From the IMG/VR virus record IMGVR_UViG_3300025117_000118, positions 1-44,297 of that record: a stretch of 44,297 bases of DNA; one strand, given 5' to 3'. The translations under genes and the position numbers were made by a program. The notes under the pieces were generated by a model. It worked only from the letters and a program-made list of their open reading frames with translations, was not told the origin of the DNA and searched no databases. This stretch comes from a virus. Every line of letters begins with the position of its first letter. The first letter of the stretch is position 1. Below, piece by piece: positions 6,653-21,063 of this stretch.

Positions 6653-6702
6653 TTTATTACCTCCAGGCACTATATGTTTGATCTAACCTGTATTCATTAT
6701 CG

Positions 6703-6732
6703 GGTATAACAATTTAAAATACAATATGACAA
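6703..6732 (-). promoter_or_regulatory. Promoter of the leftward run
   Basis: Reading the minus strand, TTGTCA at 6732-6727 is followed after 18 bp by TATACC (or after 17 bp by TTATAC). A start near 6697 would give a leader of about 45 nt carrying TTAGATCA near its 5' end and GGAGG before the ATG at 6652. Confidence 0.45.
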
Positions 6733-6775
6733 ATGACATGTTTAAATGTTCTAATAAATTGTCTGACAACACCAC

Positions 6776-7203
6776 AAATTATATATAATATATAATGTAT
6801 AATATATAATCTTCCTCTGATCCACCAGGAACCCGCTCCATAAATGATTACATAATAAGCATCCATAGAGTGGTGGCTGACTTTCTTAATTACCTGTCTG
6901 TCCATTTTCTACAAATATCCCCTATTTTACCCCTACAGCAACGCAGTATCGATATAGGTACATATCACCTATAACCCCTCATAATCGCTAATAATGCCCG
7001 TTTATTGCTATTTATAGGGTACTTATTGGTACTTTTGCCCTGTAATGGCTCATATATAGGGTACTGGTGGGCGGCACTGATCTAATGATGGTATAGATAA
7101 CATGCTCAACGAGTAAATAAGGTTAGTATAAGAATAGTTATCAAAACCATAACGTATTATTTATTGACCCGGGCTGCTTATTGCGGGGTTATTTACTCGT
7201 TGA
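6776..7203. other. Divergent control region with AT tract, direct repeats and inverted repeat
   Basis: The stretch from the last minus gene (start 6652) to the first plus gene (7675) holds no convincing CDS. Visible in it: an almost pure AT tract (about 6776-6811), the 11-bp direct repeat TATAGGGTACT at 7013-7023 and 7055-7065, the motif TGATCTAA at 7078-7085, and a perfect 15-bp inverted repeat TCAACGAGTAAATAA at 7106-7120 with its complement at 7189-7203 (68-bp spacer). This mix suits a replication origin or a control region bound by phage proteins. From 7204 to about 7410 nothing specific is visible. Confidence 0.45.
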
Positions 7204-7426
7204 ACCCAGCCACCAGGAGCACCAGGTAAAACATAGAACAAACGAGCTAAAAACGGTTTTCATCCGAACTTGGCTGAAAGCATAAGCGTCCGCCCACACA
7301 AACAATTCTGTAAAATCGCCATCTCGTTTATCTCCCCCTTTAATATTATTATCTTATAATTGATTATGGTTCGTGCATTATTAAGTATAGCGTTATGCGC
7401 TATATGTGGAATGGTGGGGAGTTTTG

Positions 7427-7435
7427 TGTTATACT
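7427..7435 (+). promoter_or_regulatory. Extended -10 element (TGT-TATACT)
   Basis: TG at 7427-7428, then TATACT at 7430-7435. A transcript from here would reach the hairpin at 7478-7497 after about 60 nt. Confidence 0.35.
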
Positions 7436-7477
7436 ATTTATGGATGCGAATTCCGCCTCAGACTTAGCAGGACACAG

Positions 7478-7500
7478 CCCCCATCAAACGATGGGGGTTT
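7478..7500 (+). terminator. Terminator-like hairpin
   Basis: CCCCCATC and GATGGGGG form a perfect 8-bp stem around AAAC, followed by a weak T run TTTG. It would end a short transcript begun near 7442. Confidence 0.55.
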
Positions 7501-7501
7501 G

Positions 7502-7510
7502 TGGTATACT
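7502..7510 (+). promoter_or_regulatory. Extended -10 element (TGG-TATACT)
   Basis: TG at 7502-7503 and TATACT at 7505-7510, directly after the terminator-like hairpin. The expected start is near 7517, just before the structured RNA. Confidence 0.4.
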
Positions 7511-7518
7511 ATAGAAAG

Positions 7519-7624
7519 CGGAGAGTGGACACTCTATCCCTTGAGAAACTCTCCATATTACTGAAAGTCGGGATCGTCCCGTGTAAGCAGAAATGCTTCT
7601 AGGTAATATGGGGAGTTTTGTGTT
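7519..7624 (+). ncRNA. Structured RNA with mutually exclusive stems, attenuator or riboswitch-like
   Basis: GGAGAGT (7520-7526) can pair perfectly with ACTCTCC (7548-7554). The latter is also part of ACTCTCCATATTAC (7548-7561), which pairs with GTAATATGGGGAGT (7603-7616) over 14 bp including one G-U. The long stem encloses two hairpins, CGGGA/TCCCG (7569-7581) and AAGCA/TGCTT (7585-7598), and is followed by TTTTG, so it could act as a terminator. The two pairings exclude each other. The 3' end shares TGGGGAGTTTTGTGTT with 7415-7430. It precedes the acyltransferase gene at 7675. A palindrome TTATCA-GATG-TGATAA follows at 7633-7648. Confidence 0.5.
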
Positions 7625-7674
7625 GCAATAAGTTATCAGATGTGATAAGTTAAATTCAGGTGTAGAATATAGAT

Positions 7675-8127
7675 ATGGAGCAAAGCGAATATCTGGACAA
7701 GCTGATGGAAGCTGGAAAAATATTGGGGGAATGGGACAGCAATAAGGTAAGCTGGCTGGACCCGGAATGGTTCTATACAAGGCAAATAGATATGCTGGAT
7801 TTTCGTGGCGATCTGCGGATAAAGTCCAACCAGGATATATTATTTGGCAGGCATATCAGGATAATTACAGCCTCGCACGAATTCATAAAAGACGGATTCA
7901 GCGGCGAATTACAGATAAGACGATGTTGGATAGATCACCATGCTTTTATCGGATCTTATGCTTTGCTTTATAATTGTGTCATTGGACACAATTCCATTGT
8001 GAGCGTTGGAAGTGTTGTAAGCAGCATGGTAGTTCCGCCGTGGACAATGGTTGAAGGGAACCCTGCAAAGATCACCAGGAAATATACGGAGGGCAGATGG
8101 AAGAATATAGCTACATTGAAGAAATAG
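7675..8127 (+). CDS. Left-handed beta-helix (hexapeptide) acyltransferase-like protein
   Basis: 150 aa. The C-terminal part (about residues 95-140) shows hexapeptide-repeat character: IDHHAFIGSYALLYNCVIGHNSIV in short pieces, then GSVV and VPPWTMVEGNPAKI, which matches the end of maltose/sugar O-acetyltransferases (VPPxxxVxGNPAK). The N-terminal half has a longer repeat-like stretch, IKSNQDILFGRHIRI. The family transfers acetyl groups from acetyl-CoA to sugars. Together with the sugar genes further right this suggests modification of the phage-made sugar. Ribosome site AGGTG is weak and lies about 14 nt upstream. Confidence 0.75.
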   Translation: MEQSEYLDKLMEAGKILGEWDSNKVSWLDPEWFYTRQIDMLDFRGDLRIKSNQDILFGRHIRIITASHEFIKDGFSGELQIRRCWIDHHAFIGSYALLYNCVIGHNSIVSVGSVVSSMVVPPWTMVEGNPAKITRKYTEGRWKNIATLKK

Positions 8128-8176
8128 TATTTGGTGTATTTGGATAATATTTATATGAATATACGCAGTCTTTTTA

Positions 8177-8185
8177 TGCTATAAT
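8177..8185 (+). promoter_or_regulatory. Extended -10 promoter (TGC-TATAAT)
   Basis: TATAAT at 8180-8185 preceded by TGC. It would start the structured RNA at about 8191. Confidence 0.5.
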
Positions 8186-8190
8186 AGTGT

Positions 8191-8275
8191 TACTTCTCTT
8201 CTCCTTTAGGCTTCGCCGATAAAACCATAGGCTTAACCATACGGCGACCCGGACAGAGTGACCGGGATCTTTTAT
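8191..8275 (+). ncRNA. Predicted short structured RNA ending in a terminator-like hairpin
   Basis: TCGCCG (8213-8218) pairs with CGGCGA (8242-8247), enclosing two copies of AACCATA. Then CCCGG (8248-8252) pairs with CCGGG (8262-8266), followed by ATCTTTTATTT. With the promoter just upstream this looks like a transcript of about 85 nt that ends before the gmhA promoter. Confidence 0.45.
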
Positions 8276-8283
8276 TTCACCCA

Positions 8284-8312
8284 TTGTCTAAAATAAAATA
8301 CCGTTATATAAT
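8284..8312 (+). promoter_or_regulatory. Sigma70-like promoter placing the start at the gmhA ATG
   Basis: TTGTCT (8284-8289), 17-bp spacer, TATAAT (8307-8312). The ATG at 8319 is 6 nt after the -10 box, where transcription would be expected to begin. No ribosome site exists in between, so the mRNA is probably leaderless. Confidence 0.7.
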
Positions 8313-8318
8313 GGTCTT

Positions 8319-8861
8319 ATGAAAACACAGGACAAGACCAGAGTTTACCTTTCGGGTGTTATTGATGGAATTACAAAACTAGACCTGGCTTCAATCGAAA
8401 AGGCTGCCGAGGTACTACGGAAAGCACGCACGAACAACAACAATGTCTGGATAGTTGGCAACGGCGGGTCTGCATCGAATGCTTCACATCTTGCCAACGA
8501 CCTGACAAAGATGTGCGGAATAAAAGCCTTTTCTGTTCCAGACATGACATCGACCACCCTTGCCTACGGCAATGATAATGGGTGGCAGTATATGTTCGTT
8601 GATACCATCAGCAAACTATATCGCGACGGGGATGTTCTTTTTGCCATATCGTGTTCCGGTAATTCTCCAAACGTGGTTGCCTGCACAGAATTTATAAGAC
8701 ATCCGTTGATCGTTCTTACCGGAAACAACAAGAAGTGCAAACTGGCACAAAAGGAACCTGATGCGATCATATTCACCGAACACGATGATATAACTGTTCA
8801 GGAATCGATCCATTCAATTATTTGTCATGTCCTTGCAGTGGTATTGCGAGATGCGCTGTAA
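8319..8861 (+). CDS. gmhA: D-sedoheptulose 7-phosphate isomerase (SIS domain)
   Basis: 180 aa, near the usual 190-195 aa of GmhA. The SIS phosphosugar-binding motif GNGGSAS is at residues 48-54, a second phosphate loop SCSGNSPN at 111-118, and a C-terminal QESIHSIICH helix carries acidic and histidine residues typical of the active site. The enzyme converts sedoheptulose 7-phosphate to D-glycero-D-manno-heptose 7-phosphate, the substrate of the HddA-type kinase at 24276-25268. It sits at the head of the packaging genes, far from the other sugar genes, and has its own promoter with an apparently leaderless start. Related SIS proteins exist, but motif and length favour GmhA. Confidence 0.85.
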   Translation: MKTQDKTRVYLSGVIDGITKLDLASIEKAAEVLRKARTNNNNVWIVGNGGSASNASHLANDLTKMCGIKAFSVPDMTSTTLAYGNDNGWQYMFVDTISKLYRDGDVLFAISCSGNSPNVVACTEFIRHPLIVLTGNNKKCKLAQKEPDAIIFTEHDDITVQESIHSIICHVLAVVLRDAL

Positions 8862-16635: not shown

Positions 16636-19356
16636 ATGAACAAACAGCAAAAGAAAAACAATTCAAGGGCAAAACGATTGGCGCAGAAAGCAAAGAAATC
16701 GCGCCAGTTGGAAGTATTGGAAGATGAGCAGGATATTCTTGAAGAAACCCTTGAAGATGATGTCATGGATGAATTTGAAGAAGAGGAAGGCGAGGTTGAA
16801 ATAAAGGAAAAGGAATATCACGGCAATTGGGATGCCAGGTCTTTTTCTGAACTTGATGCTGCAATGGAGGCTGAGAAAAAAGCCGAAAAGGTGCAGGAAA
16901 CATCATACATGGTTCAAGACCTTGTTCGCAACATCATCAGGGAACCCAACTTTAGCCTTGAACAGAAAACAGTCGCAATAAAATCTGTTGCGGATGATTT
17001 TTCTTCACGTGTTCGACAGATCATGGAAGATCCGATGATAAAGGAAACCAGTGAAGATGTCGATACTCTCATGCTTGAGGCTACCCTGGCGCGGGATAAG
17101 CGCGATATGAGCCTGCTTGAGGGTATAAAAGATGTCTTTTCAAAGGCAACCCTTTCTTCTTCGGCAAGGGAAAATCTATCTGATTCACAGTTTGCGCTTG
17201 TAATTACAAAGGACGGCAAAAAGATACGCAAATATCCCATCCACAATAAATGTCTGCATGGTGACACGGAAATATCATTGCTTGATGGACGTAGCATTCC
17301 GATAAAAGACTTGGTTGGGCAAGAGGTTTGGGTTTACTCTTTTAATATCAAACAAAAAGCGATTGTTCCTGCGATGGCAAAAAATATACGCAGAACAGTT
17401 GTAAATGAGCCAATGTTGGAAATAACACTAGACAATGGGGAATCAATCAAGTGCACATATAACCATAAATTCCTATTAAGGAACGGGAAATATTGCGAGG
17501 CTCAATTGCTAAATGTTGGCGATTCTATAATGCCACTTTATAGAAAAAAAGTTGAACAGCGTAACCGCAAACTTTATGAGCAGGTCTATCAACCATGGTA
17601 TCGAAAGTGGGAATGGACACACCACCTTGTTAACAGAGAATATAACCAATCACCATTAATGGATGGAAATATAATTCACCATGTAAATGAAAATGGTTTT
17701 GATAATACCCCAAATAATTTGGTAGAGATGTCCCGCCAATCCCACTGCGCCTTGCATGGAGAGAAAAATGGTTGGAATCATCTTGAAACGCTGAAAGAAG
17801 GCAGTAGAAACCGCTGGTTGCGTTCTGGGGAGCACAAAAAACAATCTCTTCTTATGAAGGAAGAAAACAAAAGGCGCAAGATTGATGGGCGTATGGATGA
17901 AATATCAAAAAAGATTTCATTTGCCAATAGTGGAAAATTGTCATTTGACGATATACTTGTCAATAATATTTGGGAAAAATATATTGCAGGGGCTTCTTAT
18001 ACTTCTCTTGAAAAAGAATATCATGTTAGCAGACCAACAATTCAAAAACATTTCAAGAGACTTGGGCTTCCACTAAAAAAAGAAGTTGAATCTTTTAATA
18101 ACCATAAAATTACAAAAATAGTAATTTCTGGTAATTTTGATGGGTATGATATGGAAGTGCCAAAATATAATAATTTTGCAATATCTGATGGGGTATTTGT
18201 TCACAATTCGCACGTTCGGGATGCGCTGGCTCGTGCGGCACAGATGATGAAACGTGGTGGAGCGGACGCAGAGGACGCAAAAGCCGCTCTGCCAAAGATA
18301 CGTTCTGCCGCAAAAGAAATGGGCATTGGCGCAGATATGGAAAAAGATAACAATGCCATTGTCATTGAAAAAGATATGAATGGCGATTGGCGCGCAGTAA
18401 TGTGGGTAACAAATAATTTCATAGATTGGGATGGAGAGATCATTGCGGAGGACGCCCACAAGGAATATGTTGATTGGGTGAACAAGAACAAGGACTTGAT
18501 GCCTGTTTTTGTCACATGGCATACACCTGGAACTGCCAGAGAGAACCAATTGGATTATATTGATTATGTCAATGGGTTTCTTATTGGAAGTGCAAAGTTG
18601 ACCGAGAAAGAGGCAGTCCAACTTTTGAAGGCAAAGAAAATAACCAATCTTGGAATGTCTCACGGGTCATTTGCTCTTGAAAGAGATAAGAATGATAGAA
18701 GGATCGTAACCAAATATCGTATGTATGAAGTATCGGACTTGCCACTTGAGAATGCAGCAAATCCGTTCACAAATATTGAAACAATCAGCAAGGAGGTTGA
18801 TATGGATAAAAGCAAATATCTTTCCGCCATTTTAGGTGATGAACTGGCGGAAAAATACCTCAAGAGAACCGAGTTGAAGCAGAAAGAGTTGCAGGATGCC
18901 GGTATTGAGGAAAAGAACAAGAAAGAGGAACCGGAGGGTGTGATACCAGAAACCACGGCAAAGGTTGAGGAAACAAAACCTGTGGAAAAAGATACCCTTG
19001 ACACCGATTCCATCGTTGAGCGTGTCAAAAAGGAGATCGAGATCGATGGTTTGAGTGAAACGATCACACTTCTTTTGGAAAATTCGCAGAAGGTTCCCAT
19101 CCTTGAAGGATTAGTGAAAGACCTGATGAATTCCAAAGAGGATGATCTTGTCAAGATGTTGACACCGCCTGCTTCACAACGCTTCCCGTGGACAAAGGAT
19201 AAACAGCCTTCAAAGAAGGAAGATAATATCCTCAAGGAAGACAATGAAGAGGACAAGAAATTGAAGGCTTCTGCCCCTGGTATCATTCCAGAGGGTGAAG
19301 ATTATTGGCTCTCGCGAGAGTTTGGGGTAGCCCCGCTCGAAGCAGAGAAGGCATAA
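16636..19356 (+). CDS. Prohead protease precursor interrupted by an intein
   Basis: 906 aa before splicing, about 587 after. N-terminal extein (1-205) is very acidic then helical, probably a scaffold-like region. Residues 206-524 are an intein. The C-terminal extein resumes at SHVRDALARAAQMMKRGG and leads into a prohead-protease domain: GDWRAVMWVTNNFIDWDGEI, the candidate catalytic His in VTWHTPG, and Ser in GMSHGSFALERD. The tail is helical, acidic and lysine-rich, as expected of a cleaved scaffold fusion. It would process head proteins during capsid maturation and lies directly before the capsid gene. The spliced junction HNK-SHVRDAL matches the uninterrupted form expected for this family. 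Confidence 0.82.
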   Translation: MNKQQKKNNSRAKRLAQKAKKSRQLEVLEDEQDILEETLEDDVMDEFEEEEGEVEIKEKEYHGNWDARSFSELDAAMEAEKKAEKVQETSYMVQDLVRNIIREPNFSLEQKTVAIKSVADDFSSRVRQIMEDPMIKETSEDVDTLMLEATLARDKRDMSLLEGIKDVFSKATLSSSARENLSDSQFALVITKDGKKIRKYPIHNKCLHGDTEISLLDGRSIPIKDLVGQEVWVYSFNIKQKAIVPAMAKNIRRTVVNEPMLEITLDNGESIKCTYNHKFLLRNGKYCEAQLLNVGDSIMPLYRKKVEQRNRKLYEQVYQPWYRKWEWTHHLVNREYNQSPLMDGNIIHHVNENGFDNTPNNLVEMSRQSHCALHGEKNGWNHLETLKEGSRNRWLRSGEHKKQSLLMKEENKRRKIDGRMDEISKKISFANSGKLSFDDILVNNIWEKYIAGASYTSLEKEYHVSRPTIQKHFKRLGLPLKKEVESFNNHKITKIVISGNFDGYDMEVPKYNNFAISDGVFVHNSHVRDALARAAQMMKRGGADAEDAKAALPKIRSAAKEMGIGADMEKDNNAIVIEKDMNGDWRAVMWVTNNFIDWDGEIIAEDAHKEYVDWVNKNKDLMPVFVTWHTPGTARENQLDYIDYVNGFLIGSAKLTEKEAVQLLKAKKITNLGMSHGSFALERDKNDRRIVTKYRMYEVSDLPLENAANPFTNIETISKEVDMDKSKYLSAILGDELAEKYLKRTELKQKELQDAGIEEKNKKEEPEGVIPETTAKVEETKPVEKDTLDTDSIVERVKKEIEIDGLSETITLLLENSQKVPILEGLVKDLMNSKEDDLVKMLTPPASQRFPWTKDKQPSKKEDNILKEDNEEDKKLKASAPGIIPEGEDYWLSREFGVAPLEAEKA
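17251..18207 (+). mobile_element. Intein with HNH homing endonuclease domain (319 aa)
   Basis: In-frame insertion starting with Cys (CLHGDTEISLLDGR, typical block A) and ending VFVHN before Ser, the expected splice junction. Block B is CTYNHKFLLRNG. The middle carries IIHHVNENGFDNTPNNLVEM, an HNH endonuclease core, plus a helix-turn-helix-like stretch (ASYTSLEKEYHVSRPTIQKH). It can splice itself out and, with an active endonuclease, spread to empty alleles. AT content is higher than in the exteins. Confidence 0.85.
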
Positions 19357-20941: not shown

Positions 20942-20969
20942 TTGAAATCTGTGTGTTTAGGGGTATAAT
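20942..20969 (+). promoter_or_regulatory. Promoter of the homing endonuclease and sugar cassette
   Basis: TTGAAA (20942-20947), 16-bp spacer, TATAAT (20964-20969). Confidence 0.65.
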
Positions 20970-21035
20970 GGAGCCATAAAGTAATGCATTTGGCTAATGC
21001 AAACGTGCTGCGCTTCCCAGCCCTTTATGGTTCCA
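20969..21035 (+). ncRNA. Structured leader RNA with possible pseudoknot
   Basis: TGGAGCCATAAAG (20969-20981) pairs with CTTTATGGTTCCA (21023-21035) over 13 bp with one G-U. Inside, TGCATT/AATGCA (20985-20990, 20996-21001) forms a hairpin whose loop contains GGCT (20992-20995), which can pair with AGCC at 21019-21022. It lies in the leader of the HNH-AP2 gene, 28 nt before the ATG. It has the compact build of a riboswitch or regulatory leader but matches no class I recognise. Confidence 0.5.
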
Positions 21036-21063
21036 CTATACCTCGGAAGCACAAAGGAAGCAG

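What the first reader, a model, noticed from the sequence alone, without database searches (positions are those of the whole stretch)
7519..7624. Attenuator-like RNA with two competing stems upstream of the acyltransferase
ACTCTCC at 7548-7554 can pair either with GGAGAGT upstream or, as part of a 14-bp stem, with GTAATATGGGGAGT downstream, followed by a T-containing tail. This switch geometry is typical of riboswitches and attenuators, and the 16-bp 3' end recurs at 7415-7430.
Basis: partly seen in the sequence, partly recalled or inferred. Interest (0 to 1): 0.55.

Follow-up and report, generated by a model that had tools for sequence, protein, structure and literature searches.

The report
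Phage copy of DUF3800-linked small RNA
The folded RNA seen in this phage belongs to a family of small bacterial RNAs, not found in the RNA catalogue searched here, that usually sit tail-to-tail with a gene of unknown function called DUF3800; the phage carries the RNA without the gene, which hints that it may interfere with, or imitate, a host system.

Summary
The stem is real: an 18-bp helix (7545-7562/7602-7619) closing a three-way junction with two hairpins, rank 5 of 1673 folded windows. The 7-bp competing helix is predicted to form transiently, but 0 of 13 homologues tested keep it, and acyltransferase genes of two related phages lack the element; it is not an acyltransferase riboswitch. 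A covariance model of this one sequence found homologues in genomes of the Anaerolineae group; a five-sequence model found more there and in a Bacteroidetes group. Closing-stem sequences differ but stay paired (21 of 24 pairs changed on both sides, 12 distinct rows); the core is nearly fixed (14 rows: AAA 13, CGG/CCG 14, CUA 14). No copy scanned (16 of 18) matches Rfam 15. In 14 of 17 non-window loci (one only a weak remnant) the RNA lies tail-to-tail with DUF3800, whose stop codon is 19 nt before to 8 nt after the RNA's 3' end. Eight of 11 non-redundant members have a promoter-like site at the 5' end and several end in a U-run: an independent RNA of about 80 nt. The window, and a second phage-like contig, carry the RNA without detectable DUF3800. 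Likely an orphan phage copy acting in trans; decoy or antitoxin action is untested.

The parts
7500..7512 (+). Extended -10 promoter-like element TGTGGTATACTAT (-10 hexamer TATACT 7505-7510); start predicted about 7517
   Evidence: the motif (K for G/T) occurs exactly twice (7425, 7500), but matches with up to 2 mismatches are no more than chance (2 found, 2.2 expected); no good -35
7520..7526 (+). GGAGAGT, alternative partner of ACTCTCC; competing strand seen only in the window
7545..7562 (+). P1 5' arm
7563..7568 (+). J1/2 GAAAGU; AAA kept in 13 of 14 rows
7569..7581 (+). P2 hairpin CGGGA-UCG-UCCCG; CGG/CCG base kept in 14 of 14 rows; the family form CGGCU[U/C]CAUGCCG (9 of 14 rows) is altered in the window copy
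7582..7584 (+). J2/3 UGU (UGn in 14 of 14 rows)
7585..7598 (+). P3 hairpin AAGCA-GAAA-UGCUU
7599..7601 (+). J3/1 CUA (14 of 14 rows)
7602..7619 (+). P1 3' arm
7616..7624 (+). U-rich tail TTTTGTGTT, overlapping the end of P1; candidate termination site

Best explanation
The element is a phage-borne copy of a small, independently transcribed structured RNA family. It is a three-way junction: a long closing stem P1 of free sequence, P2 with a constant CGG/CCG base, P3, and nearly constant junction letters AAAnY, UGn and CUA. In most bacterial loci found the RNA lies tail-to-tail with a DUF3800 gene. Shown here by computation: membership, covariation, the tail-to-tail linkage, a promoter-like site at the 5' end of most homologues, and no detectable DUF3800 gene in the phage record. 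Inferred: the RNA is transcribed from about 7517, folds through a transient 7-bp helix into the junction, and ends or is processed near 7621-7624, P1 serving as an intrinsic terminator. Inferred more weakly: the junction core is bound by a DUF3800 protein (an RNase H-like fold according to a published prediction), so that the phage copy acts in trans, most likely as a decoy or RNA antitoxin against a DUF3800 system of its host. The acyltransferase downstream is a neighbour, not the target.
For: Single-sequence model R1 hits, E per genome: L172 1.2e-5, L175 4e-10 and L176 8.9e-4, L178 9.7e-6; P1 arms differ in sequence but pair, core shared. Five rows: 22 of 28 pairs changed on both sides, 93.7% of cells paired, 0 of 500 shuffles as high, 39-51% paired when slid. 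Fourteen matches, 12 distinct rows: 21 of 24 pairs changed on both sides, 94.3% paired, 0 of 500. R3 matches in 10 of 400 and 6 of 198 genomes. DUF3800 or a piece of it tail-to-tail in 14 of 17 loci, stop codon -19 to +8 nt from the RNA 3' end in all 14. Pfam PF12686 over its cut-off in 4 of 7 sequences tested. Promoter score at least 9.5 in 8 of 11 non-redundant members against 3.3% of shuffles, 1 of 11 on the opposite strand. G-U 17 against A-C 8 cells favours the modelled strand. No PF12686 match in the window, 6 related phage records or genome G253; no tblastn match of three DUF3800 proteins in the window, L189 or the held pieces of those 6 phages. Second phage-like copy: L176, in a contig with tape-measure, head and terminase genes. 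DUF3800 linked to putative ncRNAs and predicted RNase H-like: PMC10910872, passages read.
Against: No transcript data. The window's P2 loop departs from the family, so the copy could be non-functional. Its promoter-like site lies about 30 nt further upstream than in most members, has no good -35, and the window scores only 6 in the tighter scan. Of 40 records searched with R3 (39 virus records, 8 of them from an unrelated HNH search) one gave a weak match, E 0.12, not recovered; so the RNA is not a core gene of these phages. A14 and A15 were fitted to the model's structure, which inflates pair counts. L180-L182 nearly repeat L179: counting them once, 11 of 14 loci have DUF3800. The L172 remnant is weak (24 residues, E 5e-5 against its own 3-kb locus, 0.007). 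The Pfam model misses divergent or partial copies (no match for L184, L186 and the L175 piece), and records may be incomplete. The decoy or antitoxin role rests on linkage and analogy only.
Confidence: 0.7

Rival explanations
1. Lambda 6S/tR'-like or attenuator leader: the stem is a terminator just after a phage promoter, and read-through, helped by the transient 7-bp helix, controls the rightward operon beginning with the acyltransferase.
For: Promoter-like element, terminator-like stem and U-rich tail in the right order; kinetic competition in prefix folding; hairpin-T-run-promoter abutments elsewhere in the window and in relatives.
Against: Absent upstream of the acyltransferase homologues of two relatives; competing strand in 0 of 13 homologues; most homologues sit tail-to-tail with DUF3800.
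Confidence: 0.2
2. A decayed relic: the phage once carried the DUF3800-RNA pair as cargo and lost the gene; the RNA now only terminates transcription.
For: Altered P2 loop; no convincing copy in 39 other virus records; L172 shows what looks like a DUF3800 remnant beside an intact RNA.
Against: Junction core, P3 with its GAAA loop and all 18 P1 pairs are intact in the window copy, which is not what unselected decay gives.
Confidence: 0.25
3. A ligand-binding riboswitch for a sugar or nucleotide.
For: A conserved three-way junction resembles aptamers; several genes of the phage are sugar-related.
Against: No Rfam match; P1 pairing probability close to 1 over most of its length without ligand; most homologues are convergent with DUF3800, not ahead of sugar genes.
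Confidence: 0.03
4. RNase III processing or mRNA-stability hairpin.
For: 18-bp duplex in an intergenic region.
Against: Does not explain the conserved junction letters or the DUF3800 linkage.
Confidence: 0.05

Closest known systems
DUF3800-associated RNA motifs of Rfam (DUF3800-I, DUF3800-IX and others)
   Same: Structured RNA of unknown function associated with DUF3800 genes.
   Different: No Rfam family matched over the element in the 16 of 18 copies scanned, at E up to 5 or 10 (L180 and L181 not scanned). That DUF3800-I and DUF3800-IX are in Rfam was seen in passages of PMC11701678. That there are eleven such motifs, from Weinberg et al. 2017, is recalled; that paper is not held.
Type III toxin-antitoxin RNA antitoxins (ToxI)
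   Same: Small structured RNA beside a putative nuclease gene. That a phage escaped ToxIN with ToxI-like RNA is recalled, not read (one search gave listings only).
   Different: No tandem repeats seen, the gene is convergent, DUF3800 is not ToxN; function untested.
Retrons with a DUF3800 effector (type VII, recalled)
   Same: The four DUF3800 proteins scanned match PADLOC model DUF3800_VII.
   Different: I noticed no reverse transcriptase among the neighbouring ORFs listed, but ran no profile search for one; that the model's suffix refers to type VII retrons is my recollection.
Lambda 6S RNA / tR' leader (recalled)
   Same: Short promoter-terminator RNA ahead of phage genes.
   Different: This element is homologous to bacterial RNAs that lie apart from such operons.

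Membership tests
DUF3800-linked three-way-junction RNA (model R3) | Score with the family covariance model | tested here: met
   76.0 bits (the window is a training sequence). Independent direction: the window-only model R1 found L175, L178, L172 and L176
DUF3800-linked three-way-junction RNA (model R3) | Junction letters AAAnY / UGn / CUA | tested here: met
   AAAGU, UGU, CUA in the window; AAA in 13, UGn in 14 and CUA in 14 of 14 rows. In the four Bacteroidetes-group copies some letters differ (L192 no CUA, L193 AAGGU and UUA, L194 and L195 GCCGGGUG)
DUF3800-linked three-way-junction RNA (model R3) | P2 form CGGCU[U/C]CAUGCCG | tested here: not met
   Window has CGGGAUCGUCCCG. Exact in 9 of 14 rows; L176, L178, L183 and L187 also depart
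DUF3800-linked three-way-junction RNA (model R3) | Convergent DUF3800 gene | tested here: not met
   No PF12686 match and no tblastn match in the window; also lacking at L176, L187 and L195 of 17 loci
Rfam DUF3800 motifs | cmscan match over the element | tested here: not met
Riboswitch / cis attenuator of the acyltransferase | Element conserved upstream of the regulated gene | tested here: not met
   Absent before the acyltransferase in G001 and G002
Riboswitch / cis attenuator of the acyltransferase | Conserved mutually exclusive stems | tested here: not met
   Competing strand of 7 bases only in the window, 0 of 13 others
Intrinsic terminator | Stem followed by U-run | tested here: inconclusive
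   TTTTGTGTT at the end of P1; the simple scan cannot see loops this long
GCUUCC leader class (window 20962-21058) | Match to model R2 | tested here: not met
   R2 lists no match at 7519-7624 up to E 10

The most novel reading that the evidence does not exclude
Phages of Anaerolineae carry orphan copies of a DUF3800-linked RNA as RNA counter-defence: the phage RNA, with intact junction core but altered P2 loop, occupies or misdirects a host DUF3800 nuclease whose own convergent RNA normally guides or restrains it. This would make DUF3800 plus RNA a two-part RNA-protein defence or toxin-antitoxin system.
Probability: 0.25. Interest if true: 0.85.

Novelty: new variant of a known kind. Interest (0 to 1): 0.6.

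Why it matters
RNAs linked to DUF3800 genes are an open puzzle: the protein is predicted to be nuclease-like and I know of no established role for the RNAs. A compact family with strong covariation, a promoter-like site of its own, a fixed tail-to-tail geometry with DUF3800, and phage-borne copies without the gene gives a direct way to ask whether the RNA is cofactor, guide or antitoxin, and whether phages exploit it.

Tried and rejected
Searches for the element (7519-7624) that found nothing convincing: blastn of 6670-8330 against phages, blastn/nhmmer against relatives, exact arm pattern in viral contigs, R1 in 58 sources and 23 records (in one search the best match outside the window was E 0.13), R1 without filters in 60 kb of the nearest phage (top hit E 0.013 is the minus strand of another palindrome). 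Rfam: none.

Rejected as chance: L173, L174 and L177, weak R1 hits not recovered by R3, and L188 (E 0.12, not recovered). L187 is recovered by R3 but has a changed J1/2 (AGGGU), no promoter-like site and no DUF3800; I read it as a degenerate copy and still count it among the 17 loci. Two hits (E about 0.008) were not fetched or examined, so the Bacteroidetes-group count is 3 of 4 fetched out of 6 hits.

One search was meant as a negative control and was not one: it gave 6 of 198 genomes; 3 of the 4 fetched have a convergent DUF3800 gene. I therefore have no clean negative-control phylum for R3.

The promoter scan was run twice: the -10 had to end before the element; it could lie up to 6 bases inside, a change made after seeing (it affects L185). 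The opposite-strand comparison reads across mostly coding sequence.

Membership in the GCUUCC leader class (20962-21058) was considered and not supported. Hammerhead and purine-riboswitch cores were compared from memory only and did not seem to fit. The conserved-block pattern found the known relative G001 plus 10 matches that look like chance.

Dropped or merged rows: L180-L182 (near-identical to L179) left out of the promoter count; in A15 (14 rows) identical rows count once, giving 12. Whole-genome scans score only part of the first-look candidates (for example 12 per genome), so hit frequencies are lower bounds. Genome groups are inferred from the titles of two records (L063 Anaerolineae, L064 Bacteroidetes); the tool tells no names for the G handles.

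Full report
Setting. The window is a 44,297-base virus record, a tailed phage judging by its terminase and portal genes. A relative of its terminase (63% identity) lies in a MAG titled Anaerolineae, so the host is probably of that group; this is an inference from one record. The finding lies in a 1-kb intergenic region between leftward genes and a rightward series: acyltransferase 7675-8127, SIS-domain gene 8319-8861, terminase genes.

Observation. The long stem is 18 bp with three G-U pairs, the longest uninterrupted stem in the window for loops up to 120 nt; shuffled windows hold 0-3 stems of 16 bp or more, so length alone is not decisive. The region folds to -37.4 kcal/mol, z -3.7, and ranks 5 of 1673 windows. 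Inside the stem are two hairpins, CGGGA-UCG-UCCCG and AAGCA-GAAA-UGCUU, so the whole is a three-way junction. The 7-bp competing helix is predicted to form first and to be displaced when the transcript reaches 7612-7616; such a complement arises in 2-15% of shuffles depending on length and on whether G-U is allowed.

It does not belong to the acyltransferase. In G001, the nearest relative (TerL 79%, SIS 76-77%), the acyltransferase (64%) follows another gene directly. In G002 a homologue (51%) likewise shows no such leader. G001 keeps a 61-bp block of the intergenic region (window 7294-7354, L065 9593-9653, 81%), but the next gene starts about 65 nt further on and the element is missing. R3 has no match in G001 or G002.

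Homologues. A covariance model from this single sequence (R1) was run on genomes grouped with the Anaerolineae MAG. Searches of 199, 56 and 396 genomes (overlapping draws) gave four convincing loci: L175 (51.8 bits), L178 (37.0), L172 (36.1) and L176 (29.3). Their P1 arms pair, yet differ from the window's, and the junction letters are alike; L172 and L176 have arms resembling each other. On the five-row alignment 22 of 28 pairs have a change on both sides and 93.7% of cells are paired, with no shuffle of 500 as high and 39-51% paired when the partners are slid. A five-sequence model (R3) found 11 matches in 10 of 400 genomes of the same phylum, two of them training genomes, and matches in 6 of 198 genomes of the phylum of a MAG titled Bacteroidetes. 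On 14 aligned matches (12 distinct rows) 21 of 24 pairs vary on both sides and 94.3% of cells pair. These alignments were fitted to the model, which favours it; the slid controls and the discovery by a one-sequence model argue that the signal is real.

The core. In the 14 rows J1/2 begins AAA in 13 (L187 has AGGGU), P2 has the CGG/CCG base in 14, J2/3 is UGn in 14 and CUA is present in 14; P2 is exactly CGGCU[U/C]CAUGCCG in 9. The P3 loop reads GNAA or GUAAA in 10 of 14 (L178, window, L172, L176, L175, L179-L182, L187); L183-L186 differ. The four Bacteroidetes-group copies keep the P2 base but vary in J1/2, J2/3 or J3/1.

What it is next to. Oriented so that the RNA reads left to right, a DUF3800 gene comes from the right and ends in or beside the RNA. 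In the first group this holds for 11 of 13 loci: L175 (a C-terminal piece at a contig edge), L178-L186, and a weak 24-residue remnant at L172; not L176 or L187. L180-L182 are near-copies of L179. In the second group it holds for 3 of 4 fetched loci (L192-L194, not L195). In all 14 the stop codon lies between 19 nt before and 8 nt after the RNA's 3' end. Of seven such sequences given to Pfam, L178, L182, L183 and L185 pass the DUF3800 cut-off; L184, L186 and the L175 piece scored nothing but align to the others by tblastn. At L185, L186, L194 and L195 the unit sits between res- and mod-like genes of what looks like a type III restriction system, judged from translations, with a PADLOC match tested for L185 only. 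The DUF3800 proteins of L178, L182, L183 and L185 match PADLOC model DUF3800_VII.

Transcription. Among 11 non-redundant members 8 have a sigma-70-like site scoring 9.5 or more at the 5' end, against 3.3% of shuffles and 1 of 11 on the opposite strand; L172 scores 9, the window and L187 6. G-U cells outnumber A-C cells 17 to 8, with 8 other mismatches, also favouring this strand. Several members, for example L175, L178, L179, L185 and L187, run from P1 into T-rich tails; L172, L176 and L186 do not. The reading is an independent RNA of about 80 nt whose closing stem can serve as terminator. In the window the promoter-like site (-10 TATACT 7505-7510) lies about 30 nt further upstream, which adds the window-specific competing strand.

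Phage copies. The window and six related phage records have no PF12686 match, nor has genome G253, which carries L176; tblastn with three DUF3800 proteins finds nothing in the window, in 19 kb around L176 (L189) or in the held pieces of those six phages. L176 lies in a contig with tape-measure, head and terminase genes. So two phage settings carry the RNA without a detectable DUF3800 gene. In the window copy the P2 loop is altered, while the junction, P3 and P1 are intact.

Known or new. No Rfam family matches the window at gathering threshold, and none matches over the element in the 16 of 18 copies scanned at permissive E-values (L180 and L181 not scanned). A published study reports an AlphaFold2-predicted RNase H fold for a DUF3800-domain protein and cites an association of the domain with putative ncRNAs (PMC10910872, passages read). 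Rfam 15 lists DUF3800-I and DUF3800-IX (PMC11701678, passages read). The original motif paper is not held, so I cannot exclude that this motif was described there. In the open-access library, searches for DUF3800 (1 paper; 11 papers, 10 listed) showed no description of this motif in the listings or in the passages I read from three of them.

Verdict. The structure is real and conserved; its interpretation changes from attenuator of the acyltransferase to a phage-borne member of a DUF3800-linked small-RNA family. Its function in the phage is inferred, and decoy or antitoxin action is the bold reading.

Noticed in passing
window 20962-21058: A second, unrelated conserved leader RNA upstream of a free-standing HNH/AP2 gene: 18-bp stem containing the -10 box, one hairpin, and GCUUCC in the loop complementary to GGAAGC just downstream and at the ribosome-binding site. 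Arms covary in window, L066, L068 and L073; model R2 also finds it at L075 16141, L006 16005 and L080 3725 (minus), which by eye follow a similar upstream protein end and had no HNH hit. Rfam: only weak matches below gathering, best E 0.14.
   Followed up: partly
window 7106-7203: 15-bp perfect inverted repeat with 68 nt between, strong fold on both strands, just downstream of TGGTATAGAT. Function unknown.
   Followed up: no
window 7294-7354: 61-bp intergenic block 81% identical to L065 9593-9653 in the nearest relative; of 11 contigs holding a 19-base pattern from it in the viral collection only that relative matches well beyond the pattern.
   Followed up: partly
window 8208-8275: SIS-gene leader: GCCGATAAAACCATAGGCTTAACC...CGGCGACCCGG and a hairpin plus TTTTATTTCACCCATTGT, similar to parts of L002 4747-5012.
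   Followed up: no
window 7415-7437, 7480-7512, 7609-7624: Three copies of a GGGG(A)G-TTT(T)GTG motif, two running into TATACTAT, as if terminator tails and extended -10 promoters were fused; a similar fusion at 2617-2667.
   Followed up: no
window 16636-19356: Intein splicing domain with HNH-like core in a 906-aa protein.
   Followed up: no
L195: R3 match between mod-like and res-like genes where a different gene takes the place of DUF3800.
   Followed up: no
L187 1323-1435: SAM riboswitch (90.6 bits) near the degenerate R3 copy, ahead of a metH-like ORF.
   Followed up: no
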